NCBI GenBank assembly: GCA_025517465.1
Contig: JAOPKE010000014.1
Coordinates: 1 to 41,706, forward strand
From: Halobacteria archaeon HArc-gm2
Lineage (GTDB): Archaea; Halobacteriota; Halobacteria; Halobacteriales; Haloarculaceae
Length of the DNA: 41,706 nucleotides
Direction: 5' to 3'
Shown here: positions 9,297 to 40,927 of the stretch, piece by piece
How the letters are laid out: every line of letters starts with the position of its first letter
How positions within the stretch are numbered: the first letter of the stretch is position 1
Position numbers and translations under genes: made by a program
The notes under the pieces: model-generated
Told to the model about the DNA's origin: nothing
The model's database searches: none
What the model saw: the letters and a program-made list of their open reading frames with translations, nothing else

Positions 9297-11203
9297 CGGA
9301 CGACGCCGAGCGGCGGGCGTCGTCGACCGAAGGGAGCGACGCCGAAGGAGCGAGCGGCGGAGCCGCGAGCAGCGAGGGGTCGTCGAACGGCGAGCGGGAG
9401 CAGCCGGAGGGTGCGACACGCGAGCGAGACGCGGACGGCCAGACACTCGTCGAACTTGCGAAGCGACGGGGCTTCTTCCTCCAGTCGGCTGGCGCCTACG
9501 GCGGCGTCTCGGGCTTCTACACCTTCGGCCCGCAGGGCGCCGCGCTGAAACAGGCCATCGAGGACACCTGGCGCGACCGCTTTACCATCCGGGAGGGGAA
9601 CGTGGAGGTCGACGCCCCGACAGTGATGCCCGAGGCCGTCTTCGAGGCCTCCGGGCACCTCGACGGCTTCGACGACATGCTCGTCGAGTGCCCGGAGTGT
9701 GGCGAGAGCCACCGCGCCGACCACGTCGTCGAGGACAACACGGACCTGGAGGACGCCGAGGCCCTGCCCGTCGAGGAGGTCGAGGAGCTCATCGCCGAGT
9801 ACGAACTCGTCTGCCCGAACTGCGGCGCCGGCCTCGCCGGCCAGGCCGTCGAGGACTTCAACCTGATGTTCGCGACGAACATCGGTCCCGGCGACTCCTC
9901 GCCGGGCTACCTGCGACCCGAGACCGCCCAGGGCATCTTCGTCGAGTTCCCCCAGCTGGCCGAGTACGCCCGGAACCAGCTCCCCTTCGGCGTCACCCAG
10001 ATCGGTCGGGCCTACCGCAACGAGATCTCCCCCAGGAAGTCGCTCCTGCGGGTCCGGGAGTTCACCCAGGCCGAACTGGAGCTGTTCATCGACCCGGAGG
10101 AAGACGAACCCGACCTCGGTCCCGTCGCGGACGTGACGGCGCCGTTTTACCCCGCGACCGAGCAGGAAGCCGACGACGGCGATCCCTACGAGGCCACTAT
10201 CGGCGAGATGGTGGAGGACGGCGTCATCGCCAAGCCGTGGATCGCCTACTACCTCGGCGTCGCGAAGGAGTGGTACGAGCGGATCGGCGTCGACATGGAC
10301 CGGTTCCGGTTCCGCCAGCACCTCTCGGGCGAGCGGGCTCACTACGCCGCGGACTGCTGGGACGCCGAGGCCGAAGTCGACGGGGACTGGATCGAACTCG
10401 GCGGCTTCGCCTACCGCTCTGACTACGACCTCTCGAAACACGACGAGTACTCCGACGACGACTTCACGGTGTTCAAACAGTACGACGAGCCCATCACGAC
10501 CGAAAAAGCGCTCGTCGACCCGGACATGAGCTACCTCGGGCCGGAGTTCGGCGGCGCGGCGCAGGACGTCGCCGACGCGCTGGCGGACCTGGCCGATCGG
10601 AACCCCGCGGCGTTCGAGGAGGCCGGAGAAGACGGCGAGGTCTCCGTCGAGGTCGACGGTGAGGAGTACACCCTCCCCGTCTCCCAGACCGACTTCCGGG
10701 TCGAGGAGGTCACCGAGTCGGGCGAGCACATCACGCCCCACGTGGTCGAACCCTCGCTCGGTATCGACCGGGCGCTGTACACCGTCCTCGACCACACCTA
10801 CCGCGCGGACGAGGTCGACGGCGAGGAGCGGGCGTTCCTCGAACTGCCCGCCGAAGTGGCCCCGACGACCGTCGGCGTCTTCCCGCTCATGGACAAGGAC
10901 GGCCTGGGCGAGAAGGCACAGGATGTCGCTCGCGAACTGCGCGAGGCCGGTCTCTCGGTCACCTACGACGACGCCGGCGCCATCGGCCGGCGCTACCGGC
11001 GGCAGGACGAGGTCGGCACGCCGTTCTGCGTCACCGTCGACTACACCACCCTCGGGGAGGGTCGGGACGACGAGGATGGGGAACCGGGGACGGTCACCGT
11101 CCGCGAGCGCGACACCACCGCACAGCAGCGGATTCCGGCCGAAGACCTTGTCGAGACCCTGACCGCCCTCCGGGACGGCGACCTGTCGTTCGACGACCTC
11201 TGA
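9293..11203 (+). CDS. glyS: Glycyl-tRNA synthetase
   Basis: Class II aminoacyl-tRNA synthetase of the archaeal/eukaryotic dimeric type, charging tRNA-Gly. The 636 residues contain the entry segment 'LVELAKRRGFFLQSAGAYGG', a zinc-ribbon-like insert (Cys133, Cys136, Cys174, Cys177), motif 2 'GRAYRNEISPRKSLLRVREF', the HYAADCWD glycine-site region and a C-terminal anticodon-binding domain with 'GRRYRRQDEVGTPFCVTVDY'. The first ~50 residues are a low-complexity Ser/Gly/Glu extension placed between MTDDAE and the usual start of the fold. The DNA encoding it resembles the intergenic GAGCG repeats and forms a hairpin at 9316-9343. The start overlaps the CBS stop. Confidence 0.95.
   Translation: MTDDAERRASSTEGSDAEGASGGAASSEGSSNGEREQPEGATRERDADGQTLVELAKRRGFFLQSAGAYGGVSGFYTFGPQGAALKQAIEDTWRDRFTIREGNVEVDAPTVMPEAVFEASGHLDGFDDMLVECPECGESHRADHVVEDNTDLEDAEALPVEEVEELIAEYELVCPNCGAGLAGQAVEDFNLMFATNIGPGDSSPGYLRPETAQGIFVEFPQLAEYARNQLPFGVTQIGRAYRNEISPRKSLLRVREFTQAELELFIDPEEDEPDLGPVADVTAPFYPATEQEADDGDPYEATIGEMVEDGVIAKPWIAYYLGVAKEWYERIGVDMDRFRFRQHLSGERAHYAADCWDAEAEVDGDWIELGGFAYRSDYDLSKHDEYSDDDFTVFKQYDEPITTEKALVDPDMSYLGPEFGGAAQDVADALADLADRNPAAFEEAGEDGEVSVEVDGEEYTLPVSQTDFRVEEVTESGEHITPHVVEPSLGIDRALYTVLDHTYRADEVDGEERAFLELPAEVAPTTVGVFPLMDKDGLGEKAQDVARELREAGLSVTYDDAGAIGRRYRRQDEVGTPFCVTVDYTTLGEGRDDEDGEPGTVTVRERDTTAQQRIPAEDLVETLTALRDGDLSFDDL
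9316..9343. repeat. GA...GA cap hairpin inside glyS
   Basis: GGCGTCGTC (9316-9324) pairs with GCGACGCC (9336-9343) over eight base pairs with one bulged T at 9323, around the 11-nt cap GACCGAAGGGA. It has the same architecture as the intergenic hairpins of this window, but lies within the coding sequence of the low-complexity N-terminus of glycyl-tRNA synthetase. Confidence 0.6.
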
Positions 11204-11311
11204 TAGTGGTGGTTGTAATTCGTTCCCAACGTTTATCCGTCGACGGTCGATTCAGCCCTGAGACACACTCGATAGCGTCTACCCGACGAAAATGGTTACA
11301 ACCACCACTAT
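11203..11311. repeat. Element with 16-bp perfect terminal inverted repeats, copy 1
   Basis: ATAGTGGTGGTTGTAA (11203-11218) is matched by its exact reverse complement at 11296-11311, with 77 bp between. The left end begins on the last base of the glyS stop codon; the right end lies 6 bp before the ATG of the next gene. An identical pair of 16-mers is found at 30172-30253 around a different, shorter interior. The element must carry the promoter of the following gene or be read through. Confidence 0.85.
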
Positions 11312-24755: not shown

Positions 24756-26336
24756 ATGACAGATACGGGCGACCAATCGGATCCGGACGATGGCGGTAGC
24801 GACGGTCCATCGAACGGTCCGGACGGAACCGGAGTCGACGACGCGGACAGCGTCAGTGAAGACGAGCTGACCGAGGCGTCCGTCGGGACCGACCTCGACG
24901 ACGTCGTCCTGGACGAACTCGACGCCGACGGTGACGGCGATTCGGGTGAGGCCTCCCGGGGTCTGTTCGACGACCTCCTCTCGGGGGAACCGATCTTCGA
25001 GAACAAGGAAGTGCTGCGGCCCTCCTACACGCCGCACAAGCTCCCCCATCGCGAGGAACAGATCAACAAGATGGCGACGATCCTGGTCACCGCTCTCCGA
25101 GGGGACTCGCCGTCGAACATCCTGATCTACGGAAAGACCGGCACCGGCAAGACCGCGAGTGCCAAGTTCGTCAGCGAGGAACTCGAGACGACCTCCCAGA
25201 AGTACGAGGTCCCCTGCGAGGTCGAGTACATCAACTGCGAGGTGACCGACACCCAGTACCGCGTCCTCGCACAGCTCGCGAACAAGTTCATCGAGAAGAA
25301 CGGGGCGGTCATCGACGACCGCGTCGACGAACTCGAAGACCTTCGCGAGCGCGCACGCGAAGACGAATCGGTACTGGCCGACTCGGCGTTCGACGACGTC
25401 GAGGCCGTGACCGAGGAGATCGACGACCTCGAGTCCGACAGGGAGGGGTTCGAGGAGGTACCGATGACCGGGTGGCCCACCGACCGGGTGTACAGTTCGT
25501 TCTTCGACGCCGTCGACTACCACGAACGCGTCGTCGTCATCATGCTCGACGAGATCGACAAGCTCGTCGAGAAGTCGGGCGACGACACGCTGTACAACCT
25601 CTCGCGGATGAACTCTCAGCTGGAGAACTCCCGGGTCTCGATCATGGGCATCTCGAACGACCTCAAGTTCACCGACTTCCTGGACCCCCGCGTCAAGTCC
25701 AGCCTCGGCGAGGAGGAGATCGTCTTCCCGCCCTACGACGCCAACCAGCTCCGGGACATCCTCGACCACCGTTCTGACGTCTCGTTCAAGGACGACGCGC
25801 TGTCGGACGACGTCATCCCGCTGTGTGCCGCCTTCGCCGCCCAGGAACACGGTGACGCCCGCCGTGCCCTCGACCTGCTCCGGACTGCCGGCGAACTCGC
25901 GGAGCGCGACCAGACGGACCTCGTCCAGGAGGCCCACGTCCGCAAGGCCCAGGAGAAGATCGAACTCGACCGCGTCGTCGAGGTCGTCCGCACCCTCCCG
26001 ACGCAGTCGAAGATCGTCCTCTTCGCGATCATGCTGCTCGAGAAGAACGGCGTCCGCAACATCAACACCGGCGAGGTGTACAACATCTACAAGCGCCTCT
26101 GCGAGGAGATCGACGCCGACATCCTCACCCAGCGCCGGGTCACCGACCTCATCTCCGAACTCGACATGCTCGGCATCGTCAACGCCGTCGTCGTCTCGAA
26201 GGGCCGGTACGGCCGGACCAAGGAGATCAGCCTCTCGGTTCCACTCGAAGAGACGGAGGCCGTGTTGCTCTCTGACTCCAGGCTCGGTGACATCGACGAC
26301 GCCGAACCGTTCGTCCAGGCCCGCTTCGACAACTGA
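24756..26336 (+). CDS. orc1: Orc1/Cdc6 replication initiator
   Basis: Initiator ATPase that binds origin recognition boxes and loads the replicative helicase. The 526 residues begin with an acidic disordered tail (about 1-72), then an AAA+ domain with Walker A GKTGTGKT (126-133), Walker B LDEID (264-268) and 'SRMNSQLENSRVSIMGISND' sensor 1 region, and end with a winged-helix DNA-binding domain (about 420-526). It lies directly beside the origin it is expected to activate, as in other haloarchaea where Orc1 and oriC1 form a unit. ATG at 24756. All ATPase motifs are intact. Confidence 0.97.
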   Translation: MTDTGDQSDPDDGGSDGPSNGPDGTGVDDADSVSEDELTEASVGTDLDDVVLDELDADGDGDSGEASRGLFDDLLSGEPIFENKEVLRPSYTPHKLPHREEQINKMATILVTALRGDSPSNILIYGKTGTGKTASAKFVSEELETTSQKYEVPCEVEYINCEVTDTQYRVLAQLANKFIEKNGAVIDDRVDELEDLRERAREDESVLADSAFDDVEAVTEEIDDLESDREGFEEVPMTGWPTDRVYSSFFDAVDYHERVVVIMLDEIDKLVEKSGDDTLYNLSRMNSQLENSRVSIMGISNDLKFTDFLDPRVKSSLGEEEIVFPPYDANQLRDILDHRSDVSFKDDALSDDVIPLCAAFAAQEHGDARRALDLLRTAGELAERDQTDLVQEAHVRKAQEKIELDRVVEVVRTLPTQSKIVLFAIMLLEKNGVRNINTGEVYNIYKRLCEEIDADILTQRRVTDLISELDMLGIVNAVVVSKGRYGRTKEISLSVPLEETEAVLLSDSRLGDIDDAEPFVQARFDN

Positions 26337-26365
26337 TACTGTCGGTCGTAAGCCCGTACCGGCGT

Positions 26366-26505
26366 CCGGCCGAACCGCGTGAGGCCGGGCTCGATAGACG
26401 AACGGAGTGAGTCTATCGGCGTCCTGTCGAGCGTAGCGAGACAGGGCTCATCGGATGAGCAGCGCGAATCCGATGGCGTCCCGACGAGCATGGCGAGTCC
26501 GTCGG
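26366..26505. repeat. Array of GA...GA cap hairpins behind orc1
   Basis: Five hairpin units follow one another 30 bp after the orc1 stop. Stems and caps: CCGGCC/GGCCGG around GAACCGCGTGA (26366-26388); CGATAGAC/GTCTATCG around GAACGGAGTGA (26392-26418); CCTGTC/GACAGG around GAGCGTAGCGA (26423-26445); CATCGGAT/ATCCGATG around GAGCAGCGCGA (26449-26475); and a weak unit with GAGCATGGCGA (26486-26496). GGCGTC or GGCGTT separates the units. Stems differ completely between units yet pair perfectly in the first four. Confidence 0.9.
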
Positions 26506-26562
26506 CGTTCGTCGTGACCGGAGCCGTCGAACCCCGGAAAACAGTTACGACCGACACTACGA

Positions 26563-26575
26563 ACCCCTTCGTTTC
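26563..26575 (-). promoter_or_regulatory. Origin recognition box downstream of orc1
   Basis: The exact 13-mer GAAACGAAGGGGT in minus orientation, preceded by GTCGACGT... on that strand (half dyad ACGT). It lies between the hairpin array and the sec11 stop codon and extends the set of Orc1-type sites to the far side of the initiator gene. Confidence 0.75.
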
Positions 26576-26622: not shown

Positions 26623-27279
26623 CTATAGCAGTTCGCACGCGCCGGGCCGGGTGGCGGCGCCCGTCGCGCTCAGCCTGATACAGCCGAGCCACGGGACTCT
26701 GACCTCTGCTGTTCCGATGACCCAGCTCGCCTTGACCGGTCCGGAGAGGTTCGTCACCTGGTCGTACTGGCCGTTGTAGTCGCCCTTGGTGATGAAACCA
26801 GATTCGTTCGCCGGGCAGTTGTTGAGTTCCTCGCAACTGTCGGCCGCGCCGACGTACTCGGGATTTGCCTCGTCGTACCAGTTCTCGCCGTCCTCTACCC
26901 AGAACATCGCCCGGTGGATTATCGGCGTGGTCTGGTTGTTCCCGTCCGGCGCGTAGACGATGACGTCACCCGGCTTCTGGAACTTCGAGTAGCCCGCCGA
27001 CTGGGCGGCGTGGGCCGTGACGACGCCCGTCTCGCCCTGCTGGACCTCGCCGGCGAACCGCTCTTCCTCCATCACGAAGACGAGATCGCCAACGTGGATG
27101 TTGGGGCTCATGCTCTTGGACTCGATGGCGACCAGCGGCGGCCAGACGCCGCTGACGGCGAAGAGCAACAGCCCCACGAGGACGACGGCGGAGATACTGC
27201 TCAGGAGGTCGGTCACGTAGGCTTTCCAGGACGGATCGTCGGGCTGGTCCGGCGGGTTCGGACCGCGCGCCTCGCTCAT
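26623..27279 (-). CDS. sec11: Signal peptidase I (archaeal Sec11 type)
   Basis: Membrane-bound protease that removes Sec signal peptides outside the cell membrane. The 218 residues have a transmembrane helix at about 27-46, the catalytic serine Ser56 in KSMSPNIHVGDLV, and the histidine of 'TTPIIHRAMFW', which in archaeal and eukaryotic Sec11 replaces the bacterial lysine; a GFITKGD motif follows. The ATG at 27279 is chosen because the TATA-like TTGATACG lies 27 nt upstream at the same spacing as in the paralogue. An alternative TTG six bases upstream is less likely. It is followed by the orc1-side recognition box and faces orc1. Confidence 0.93.
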   Translation of the reverse strand: MSEARGPNPPDQPDDPSWKAYVTDLLSSISAVVLVGLLLFAVSGVWPPLVAIESKSMSPNIHVGDLVFVMEEERFAGEVQQGETGVVTAHAAQSAGYSKFQKPGDVIVYAPDGNNQTTPIIHRAMFWVEDGENWYDEANPEYVGAADSCEELNNCPANESGFITKGDYNGQYDQVTNLSGPVKASWVIGTAEVRVPWLGCIRLSATGAATRPGACELL

Positions 27280-27300
27280 CGTCAAAAGGTGGGTCGGAAG

Positions 27301-27391: not shown

Positions 27392-28063
27392 TCAGACGAC
27401 GGGCAGCTCGCAGGCATCGGGTCGCGTCTCCGGCCCGCTCGCGCGCAACCGGAGACACCCGAGCCACGGCAGACGGGCCTCTGCGGTCCCGACGATCCAC
27501 TCGGGTCTGACCGGTTCGAACATTCCCTGGGCCTGGTCGTAGCCGGGGTTCGTCCGGGCGTTGTCGCCCTTGGTGACGAAGCCGGCGTGGGGCGCTGGAC
27601 AGTTACGGAGTTCCGCACAGCTCTGGGCGTCACCCACGAATTCGGGGTTCGCCTCGTCGTACCAGTTCTCGTCGTCCTCCACCCAGAACATCGCCCGGTG
27701 GATCACCGGCGTCGCGTCGTCGTTCCCGTCCGGCGCGAAGACGACGACGTCGCCCGGACCGTCGAACGTCGCGTACCCGTTGTCGGCGGCCGTCCTCGCG
27801 GTGACGACGCCCGTCTCGCCGTGGGCGCCGTCTCCGGGGAACCTCGCCTCGTCCATCACGAAGACGAGGTCACCGACGGCCATGTTCGGTTCCATGCTCT
27901 CGCTCTCGACGGCGACCATCGGCGGCCAGACGCCGCTAATCGCGAACAGGAACAGGACGACTAGCCCGACGGACAGCACGCTGCTCGCCAGGTCCGCCAG
28001 GTACACCTGCCAGGATGGCTTCGAAGACCCGGCAGACGCCCCCGTCCCGTCGGACTCGCTCAC
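27392..28063 (-). CDS. Signal peptidase I paralogue
   Basis: A 223-residue second Sec11-type protease, clearly a tandem paralogue of the 218-residue neighbour: one transmembrane helix at about 26-46, catalytic Ser56 in ESMEPNMAVGDLV, the histidine in 'TPVIHRAMFWVEDD' and a GFVTKGD motif. The GTG at 28063 is chosen over the ATG at 28075: with it the promoter motif is 27 nt upstream, identical to the neighbour, and the proteins both begin MSE. A 112-bp gap and an independent promoter separate the two genes. Whether the two differ in substrate range cannot be told. Confidence 0.88.
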   Translation of the reverse strand: MSESDGTGASAGSSKPSWQVYLADLASSVLSVGLVVLFLFAISGVWPPMVAVESESMEPNMAVGDLVFVMDEARFPGDGAHGETGVVTARTAADNGYATFDGPGDVVVFAPDGNDDATPVIHRAMFWVEDDENWYDEANPEFVGDAQSCAELRNCPAPHAGFVTKGDNARTNPGYDQAQGMFEPVRPEWIVGTAEARLPWLGCLRLRASGPETRPDACELPVV

Positions 28064-28084
28064 GGTCGAAACCATCGACGGACT

Positions 28085-30172: not shown

Positions 30173-30253
30173 TAGTGGTGGTTGTAACTTTTTACCGGCG
30201 TTCGCCGGTACCGGCCACGACGAACGCCGGTAAGTGCTTACAACCACCACTAT
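30172..30253. repeat. Element with 16-bp perfect terminal inverted repeats, copy 2
   Basis: ATAGTGGTGGTTGTAA at 30172-30187 and its exact reverse complement at 30238-30253, identical to the ends of the element at 11203-11311. Inside is a second, nested perfect inverted repeat: TTACCGGCGTTCG (30192-30204) with CGAACGCCGGTAA (30221-30233). The left end begins on the last base of a TGA stop codon, exactly as in copy 1. The interior is unrelated to that of copy 1 in length and sequence. Confidence 0.88.
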
Positions 30254-40867: not shown

Positions 40868-40927
40868 GGAGATTCCGACCGCCGGGAGGAATCTCCGTAA
40901 AGACGAACGGCGAGTGGAGCGAGCCGT
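40868..40927. repeat. Two GA...GA cap hairpins behind the aminopeptidase
   Basis: The first hairpin starts on the base after the stop codon: GGAGATTCC (40868-40876) and GGAATCTCC (40888-40896), 9 of 9 pairs, around the 11-nt cap GACCGCCGGGA. The second pairs ACGGC (40907-40911) with GCCGT (40923-40927) around GAGTGGAGCGA. Neither is followed by a T-run, so simple termination is not the obvious role. Confidence 0.8.

What the first reader, a model, noticed from the sequence alone, without database searches (positions are those of the whole stretch)
26366..26505. Hairpin array behind orc1 with covarying stems and a fixed GA...GA cap
Four consecutive hairpins have unrelated stems that pair perfectly (6, 8, 6 and 8 bp), and a fifth is weak. 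All have an 11-nt cap of the form GA-N-C-NNN-G-N-GA. Inside the cap, position 3 pairs with position 9 and changes with it (A:T, A:T, G:C, G:C, G:C), and C4 pairs with G8. Opposed GA/GA dinucleotides can form tandem sheared G.A pairs, so each unit reads as stem, G.A platform, two pairs and a triloop. Several triloops fit GNA, and d(GC-GNA-GC) mini-hairpins are known to be unusually stable. Compensatory change in tandem units implies selection on structure in RNA or extruded single-stranded DNA. The place, between orc1 and an Orc1 box, raises a possible role in origin function or 3'-end formation of orc1 mRNA.
Basis: partly seen in the sequence, partly recalled or inferred. Interest (0 to 1): 0.85.

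Follow-up and report, generated by a model that had tools for sequence, protein, structure and literature searches.

The report
Nested mobile hairpin repeats beside orc1
The hairpin array behind this salt-loving archaeon's orc1 gene is real, but it is a 57-base double-hairpin repeat, found across the haloarchaea, that sits inside a small transposon-like element which landed on orc1's stop codon; it is probably not part of the replication origin.

Summary
In detail: four perfectly paired hairpins (6, 8, 6, 8 bp) plus a weak fifth share the GA-N-C-NNN-G-N-GA cap, and pairs covary strongly. The array is the swollen core of a MITE (26337-26559) with 15-bp inverted ends. Minimal copies are 80 bp and several longer copies are 80 + n x 57 bp. 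Of 54 copies in the part of the genome surveyed, 42 have perfect 3-bp target duplications, always TGA/TCA; in 41 of 53 the TGA is a neighbour's stop codon, here orc1's. The sister species has a decayed copy without the array; four other congeners have none. The repeating 57-bp unit (two hairpins, GGCTC spacer, GGYGT end) also occurs without the MITE, 3' of GGYGT-like pentamers, including inside coding genes and tRNA ends, with empty sites in relatives. A covariance model finds it in 103 of 116 haloarchaeal genomes. G-U pairs are nearly absent, the cap matches stable DNA mini-hairpins, and orientation to genes shows no bias, so DNA-level folding is favoured. Best reading: REP/PATE-like single-strand-DNA units nested in a MITE. 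The mobilising enzyme is unknown; no Y1 transposase locus examined carries such ends.

The parts
26334..26336 (+). orc1 stop codon TGA = left target-site duplication of the MITE (right copy degenerate, CGA 26560-26562)
   Evidence: 41 of 53 copies abut a neighbour's TGA stop codon
26337..26559 (+). whole MITE copy, 223 bp = 80-bp minimal element + 57 + 57 + 29
   Evidence: minimal copies 80 bp, longer copies 137, 194, 308, 365 bp
26337..26351 (+). left terminal inverted repeat TACTGTCGGTCGTAA
   Evidence: 14/15 match to the reverse complement of the right end; family consensus TAGTGGTGGTTGTAA
26352..26365 (+). left core ending in GGCGT, the pentamer after which units are inserted
26366..26422 (+). 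57-bp unit 1: hairpin I CCGGCC-GAACCGCGTGA-GGCCGG, GCT spacer, hairpin II CGATAGAC-GAACGGAGTGA-GTCTATCG, end GGCGT
   Evidence: model E 5e-13
26423..26479 (+). 57-bp unit 2: hairpin I CCTGTC-GAGCGTAGCGA-GACAGG, hairpin II CATCGGAT-GAGCAGCGCGA-ATCCGATG, end GGCGT
26480..26508 (+). 29-bp chimeric remnant of a unit (weak fifth hairpin): 5' arm of a type I hairpin, 3' arm of a type II hairpin
   Evidence: comparison with C1:903115 copy and unit list
26509..26544 (+). right core of the MITE
   Evidence: matches minimal copies
26545..26559 (+). right terminal inverted repeat TTACGACCGACACTA
30173..30252 (-). second copy in the window: minimal 80-bp MITE without array, TGA duplication, directly after the stop codon of the + strand ORF ending 30172
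11204..11310 (.). third copy in the window: 107-bp MITE with the same ends and a different core, TGA duplication, directly after a stop codon

Best explanation
Two repeats are nested. (1) A non-autonomous transposon (MITE, minimal 80 bp, 15-bp inverted ends, 3-bp TGA/TCA target duplication) inserted into the TGA stop codon of orc1 in a recent ancestor; the duplication re-creates the stop codon, so orc1 stays intact [shown by comparison]. (2) Into the GGCGT of its core came 57-bp units, each made of two strand-specific capped hairpins and ending in GGYGT [unit anatomy and location shown]. Because each unit brings its own GGYGT end, further units can be added there in the same direction, giving tandem arrays [inferred]; the fifth hairpin is a deletion between units [inferred from a near-identical copy]. 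The unit is a class-wide haloarchaeal element that works like an IS200/IS605-end or REP/PATE-type palindrome: folded as single-stranded DNA, recognised by its cap and feet rather than by stem sequence, and joined 3' of a GGYGT-like pentamer without target duplication [inferred; mobilising enzyme not found; I give this last step about 0.4].
For: MITE: 54 copies in the surveyed part of the genome, 42 with perfect direct TGA or TCA duplications and none with inverted ones; TIR pattern 112 ends against 3 control matches; TGA is the stop codon in 41/53 against 24% expected from CTGA[GC] sites (p 5e-16). orc1 site: no element in G001, G002, G004, G005; decayed, array-less copy in sister G006. Length series 80, 137, 194, 308, 365. 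Unit independent of the MITE: arrays without its ends at C12:477804, C18:135037, C14:355892, C1:833828 and in H. urmianum. Model finds it in 103/116 haloarchaeal genomes, 0 matches in 485 kb of loci from other archaea. Left flanking pentamer over 74 non-redundant sites: G63 G48 C46 G56 T63 of 74; unit ends CGGYGT. Empty against filled sites: sucD 3'-end fragment; IS605 TnpB, GGCGT|unit ending GGTGT, in Halovenus, Natrialbaceae AArc-T1-2 and Halalkaliarchaeum against five empty relatives. DNA-level folding: G-U cells 9 of 551 paired against 116 double changes and 7 of 681 against 168; cap context.
Against: No transposase with matching ends was found: the one Y1 transposase in the genome and 11 other haloarchaeal IS200/IS605 loci carry no capped hairpins except units lying inside TnpB; no autonomous element with the MITE ends was seen. 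Stem sequences vary far more than in IS200/IS605 ends or bacterial REPs. Several unit sites depart from GGYGT. Hairpin II is imperfect in 30 of 64 units, many of them apparent arm hybrids, so decay and recombination are common. The window copy's right duplication is degenerate (CGA).
Confidence: 0.68

Rival explanations
1. The hairpins act as RNA: they form the 3' ends of mRNAs (terminator, processing signal or stabiliser) and are kept by selection on RNA structure.
For: Strong RNA fold of the + strand (z -3.3; units -29 against about -23.5 kcal/mol for the other strand); elements lie directly behind stop codons; clusters enriched between convergent genes, 12/34 against 16% (p 0.004); hairpins precede about 500 3' ends in Haloferax volcanii and one tested hairpin terminated 59% of transcripts (PMC7237163).
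Against: Orientation relative to genes unbiased (6 sense, 11 antisense); units also lie in coding sequences and divergent regions; no U-tract follows; G-U pairs nearly absent; stop-codon location is explained by the MITE's TGA target.
Confidence: 0.15
2. No function and no dedicated mobility: stable cap sequences promote fold-back and template switching during replication, which makes arms perfectly complementary, while slippage and gene conversion between GGYGT repeats spread and shuffle modules.
For: A limited set of stems is reused in mosaic combinations (18 type I and 23 type II 5' arms in 64 units); hybrid hairpins are frequent; strict Watson-Crick pairing without G-U is what copying one arm from the other would give; orthologous arrays differ by whole units.
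Against: Does not by itself explain new insertions at GGYGT sites in unrelated genes with clean empty sites, the conserved cap, spacer and length over a whole class, or the fixed strand orientation within clusters (16 of 18).
Confidence: 0.3
3. The array is a functional part of the orc1-linked replication origin (between orc1 and an Orc1 box).
For: It lies between orc1 and an Orc1-box-like site at 26563 (-).
Against: Dispersed repeat; absent behind orc1 in four congeners; the sister species has no array there; dozens of arrays of the same type elsewhere.
Confidence: 0.02

Closest known systems
MITEs, including the minisatellite-bearing BrickBuilt MITE of Porphyromonas gingivalis (PMC4596501) and haloarchaeal MITEs and SMRs of Haloquadratum (PMC3119063)
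   Same: Short, non-coding, inverted ends, many copies, target duplication; BrickBuilt also carries a tandem repeat array inside a MITE.
   Different: 3-bp TGA duplication placed at stop codons; the array is a structured two-hairpin unit that also lives outside the MITE.
PATEs and IS200/IS605 ends (PMC3119063, PMC6006769)
   Same: Two hairpins of about 23 and 27 nt, strand-specific, no target duplication, a short fixed oligonucleotide left of the element and a similar one at its right end.
   Different: Stem sequences vary freely; no TnpA with such ends found; 57 bp with nothing else inside.
Bacterial REPs: GTAG- and CGTC-tagged palindromes (PMC3733652, PMC8266576)
   Same: Small intergenic palindromes in high copy, favouring gene 3' ends and convergent regions, sometimes inside genes; CGTC REPs also lack a known transposase, and the haloarchaeal feet read GGCGTC/GGTGTC.
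   Different: No GTAG; not the 8-9 bp stem with 4-5 nt loop of CGTC families; head-to-tail pairs instead of head-to-head dimers; seen here only in haloarchaea.
d(GCGNAGC) DNA mini-hairpins and d(Y-GA-R) tandem sheared G.A pairs (own knowledge; mini-hairpin use in PMC4686876)
   Same: The commonest caps (GAGCGAAGCGA, GAGCGGAGCGA) contain GCGNAGC between opposed GA dinucleotides in Y-GA-R context.
   Different: A physical motif, not a genomic element; many array caps have other triloops (TGC, ATG, AGC).

Membership tests
MITE | terminal inverted repeats | tested here: met
   15 bp, 14/15 in the window copy; 112 TIR matches against 3 control
MITE | target-site duplication | tested here: met
   42/54 perfect 3-bp TGA/TCA; window copy TGA/CGA degenerate
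MITE | insertion polymorphism (filled and empty sites) | tested here: met
   orc1 site filled in G000 and decayed in G006, empty in G001, G002, G004, G005
MITE | ends shared with an autonomous transposon | tested here: inconclusive
   none seen in the own genome; other genomes and other transposase families not searched
IS200/IS605-type or PATE element (the 57-bp unit) | strand-specific subterminal hairpins of 20-25 nt | tested here: met
   23 and 27 nt hairpins, covariation
IS200/IS605-type or PATE element (the 57-bp unit) | insertion 3' of a short fixed sequence, no target duplication, similar right-end sequence | tested here: met
   flank consensus GGCGT, unit end CGGYGT; empty sites
IS200/IS605-type or PATE element (the 57-bp unit) | Y1 transposase loci bounded by the same hairpins | tested here: not met
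   12 haloarchaeal IS200/IS605 loci; capped hairpins only as units inside TnpB
IS200/IS605-type or PATE element (the 57-bp unit) | guide sequences pairing with the cleavage sites | not tested
   no structure or biochemical data
GTAG REP | GTAG at the hairpin foot and a TnpA-REP gene | tested here: not met
   foot is GGYGT; the only PF01797 protein is a 137-aa IS200-type TnpA
CGTC REP | CGTC/TGTC tag, 8-9 bp stem starting with A-T pairs, 4-5 nt loop, head-to-head dimers | tested here: not met
   tag resembles (GGCGTC/GGTGTC) but stems are 6 and 8 bp of varied sequence, the cap is 11 nt, and units are head to tail
intrinsic terminator / 3'-end signal | sense orientation downstream of genes and a T-tract | tested here: not met
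   6 sense, 11 antisense clusters; no T-tract after the array (sequence)

The most novel reading that the evidence does not exclude
Haloarchaea carry a class-wide, previously undescribed family of single-strand-DNA recombination units whose identity is kept as a folded shape (two GA-capped hairpins with free stem sequence) and which are inserted 3' of GGYGT by an unknown enzyme, an archaeal counterpart of REP systems.
Probability: 0.3. Interest if true: 0.85.

Novelty: new variant of a known kind. Interest (0 to 1): 0.6.

Why it matters
A double-hairpin repeat kept by shape rather than sequence occurs in about nine of ten haloarchaeal genomes sampled and differs between sister species. It offers a natural catalogue of independent stems on one fixed cap for asking whether the fold acts in DNA or RNA, and it points to an unknown mobilising activity. 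It also warns against reading hairpin arrays next to orc1 as origin parts, and covariation in such repeats as proof of a functional RNA.

Tried and rejected
An apparent replication-strand bias in a hit list was an artefact of the truncated list: complete scanning of 960 kb shows both strands. Origin function: rejected on relatives. Known RNA family: none in Rfam. IS200/IS605 as direct parent: the ends of 12 loci lack the cap. DDE parent in the own genome: the PF01609 hits do not show the MITE ends. Literature: text searches for the cap sequences and for haloarchaeal repeats, REPs and MITEs found no description of this unit, but the library lacks most subscription journals.

Full report
Observation. 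The four hairpins at 26366-26479 pair perfectly (6, 8, 6, 8 bp), all with caps GA-N-C-NNN-G-N-GA, and a fifth is weak. The + strand folds better than every shuffle (z -3.3). In 960 kb of the same genome, caps flanked by stems of 5 bp or more number 66, against 0, 7 and 2 for three control caps, and 63 of the 66 are intergenic. So the structure is real and part of a genome-wide set.

What the array sits in. Copies of the flanks showed a dispersed element with inverted ends. A catalogue of 54 copies (contig C1, parts of C2 and C3, the window and fetched sites) gives a minimal 80-bp form and longer forms of 137, 194, 308 and 365 bp, that is 80 + n x 57; the window copy is 223 = 80 + 57 + 57 + 29. 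In 42 copies the flanks are perfect 3-bp direct repeats, 17 TGA and 25 TCA (the same site read on the other strand), never TGA facing TCA, so this is a true target duplication. In 41 of 53 copies the TGA is the stop codon of the neighbouring gene, far above the 24% expected from CTGA[GC] sites in intergenic DNA and at stop codons. In the window the TGA is orc1's stop codon. Two more copies lie in the window, at 11204-11310 and 30173-30252.

History at orc1. Among six congeners, G001, G002, G004 and G005 have no element after orc1. G006, whose Orc1 is 98% identical, has a decayed copy at the same TGA without the array; G003 could not be read there. The element therefore entered in a recent ancestor, and the array was gained in this lineage or lost in the sister. 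The genus is Halomicrobium: G005 coordinates coincide with a Halomicrobium urmianum plasmid record.

The 57-bp unit. Hairpin I (6 bp), GCT spacer, hairpin II (8 bp), end GGYGT. On 64 distinct units the leading covarying columns are predicted pairs. Pair counts on 32 units give 95.7% paired, 116 double-changed cells against 31 in shuffles and 3-8 in slid versions. On 44 matches, nearly all from other species, 97.7% paired, 168 double changes against 51 (that alignment was fitted to the model and leans towards it). One-sided G-U change is almost absent: 9 of 551 and 7 of 681 paired cells. RNA helices normally show more G-U (own knowledge), so pairing is probably kept, or copied from arm to arm, at the DNA level. 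Caps lie in Y-GA-R context (57 of 66) and 46 of 66 triloops are GNA, as in the very stable d(GCGNAGC) hairpin (own knowledge). Energy models do not show a clear DNA strand preference, but they are not built for this triloop.

Spread. The unit model finds matches at E <= 0.001 in 103 of 116 haloarchaeal genomes (53 in the own genome) and none in 485 kb of loci from other archaea. Units occur outside the MITE. Over 74 non-redundant places the five bases to the left read G63 G48 C46 G56 T63 of 74, and the unit ends in CGGYGT. Filled and empty sites show that the left pentamer belongs to the host: in an IS605 TnpB gene GGCGT is followed by a unit (ending GGTGT in Halovenus) in three species and by nothing in five; in a duplicated sucD 3' end the sister species lacks the unit; an epimerase-like gene fragment carries units after GGCAT in several species, and some tRNA genes carry them at GCCGGTGT.

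Mechanism. The anatomy matches what is described for IS200/IS605 ends: hairpins of 20-25 nt on one strand, a fixed short sequence left of the element and a similar one at its right end (PMC6006769). It also recalls PATEs of Haloquadratum (PMC3119063) and CGTC-tagged REPs, which likewise lack a known transposase (PMC3733652). But the Y1 transposase loci examined do not carry the capped hairpin, and archaea are reported to have only the IS200-type TnpA subclass (PMC6006769). I therefore place the unit as working like such an element, not as a proven member. Slippage, module shuffling and template switching clearly could add to array evolution: hybrid hairpins are common (hairpin II fully paired in 34 of 64 units), and the fifth hairpin in the window looks like one.

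Function. Orientation relative to genes is unbiased (6 sense, 11 antisense), with some preference for convergent regions. This argues against a transcript-strand signal as the main reason for conservation, although individual copies may affect mRNA ends. A MITE carrying a minisatellite has a precedent in Porphyromonas gingivalis (PMC4596501).

Limits. Genome-wide hairpin counts are extrapolated from C1. The class-wide search used strict filters and scored few candidates per genome, so copy numbers are lower bounds. Covariation tests do not correct for relatedness beyond shuffles and slid controls.

Noticed in passing
window 24118 (-), 24385 (+), 24727 (+), 26563 (-), 28488 (+): Orc1-box-like sites (GTGAAACGAAGGGGT, 0-2 mismatches) on both sides of orc1, as expected for an origin; congeners G001, G002 and G004 have a similar site directly behind orc1 without the element.
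   Followed up: partly
window 40868-40896: Isolated hairpin GGAGATTCC-GACCGCCGGGA-GGAATCTCC with the same cap form.
   Followed up: no
G000:C1:790180-790460 (L130 about 10180-10460): Duplicate of the 3' end of a sucD-like gene directly behind the intact gene, with a 59-bp hairpin unit inside; G001 and G002 have the same duplicate with a different array, G006 has none.
   Followed up: partly
L290, L288, L289, L294, L297: Hairpin units inside (partial) copies of an epimerase-like gene, after TACGGCAT, in several species; in L290 the 3'-end fragment with its unit is repeated.
   Followed up: no
L296, L301, L312, L302, L305, L314: Units at tRNA ends or inside tRNA-like sequence (for example GCCGGTGT-unit-GCCGGTGT-AGCTCAG); possible att-like use of tRNA genes.
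   Followed up: no
L098, L083, L105, L135, L275: Related units share the right flank ACTGAAAGGGCGAGG or a close variant, suggesting a larger repeat that includes the unit.
   Followed up: no
G000:C1:364051 and C1:766937: Two capped hairpins are followed by the same sequence GAAGGAAGTTTTTAGCGTAGATTTTT or nearly so, a possible terminator-like repeat.
   Followed up: no
window 26623-27285 and 27392-28075 (-): Two similar neighbouring genes on the minus strand that look like signal-peptidase-type paralogues, downstream of and convergent with orc1.
   Followed up: no
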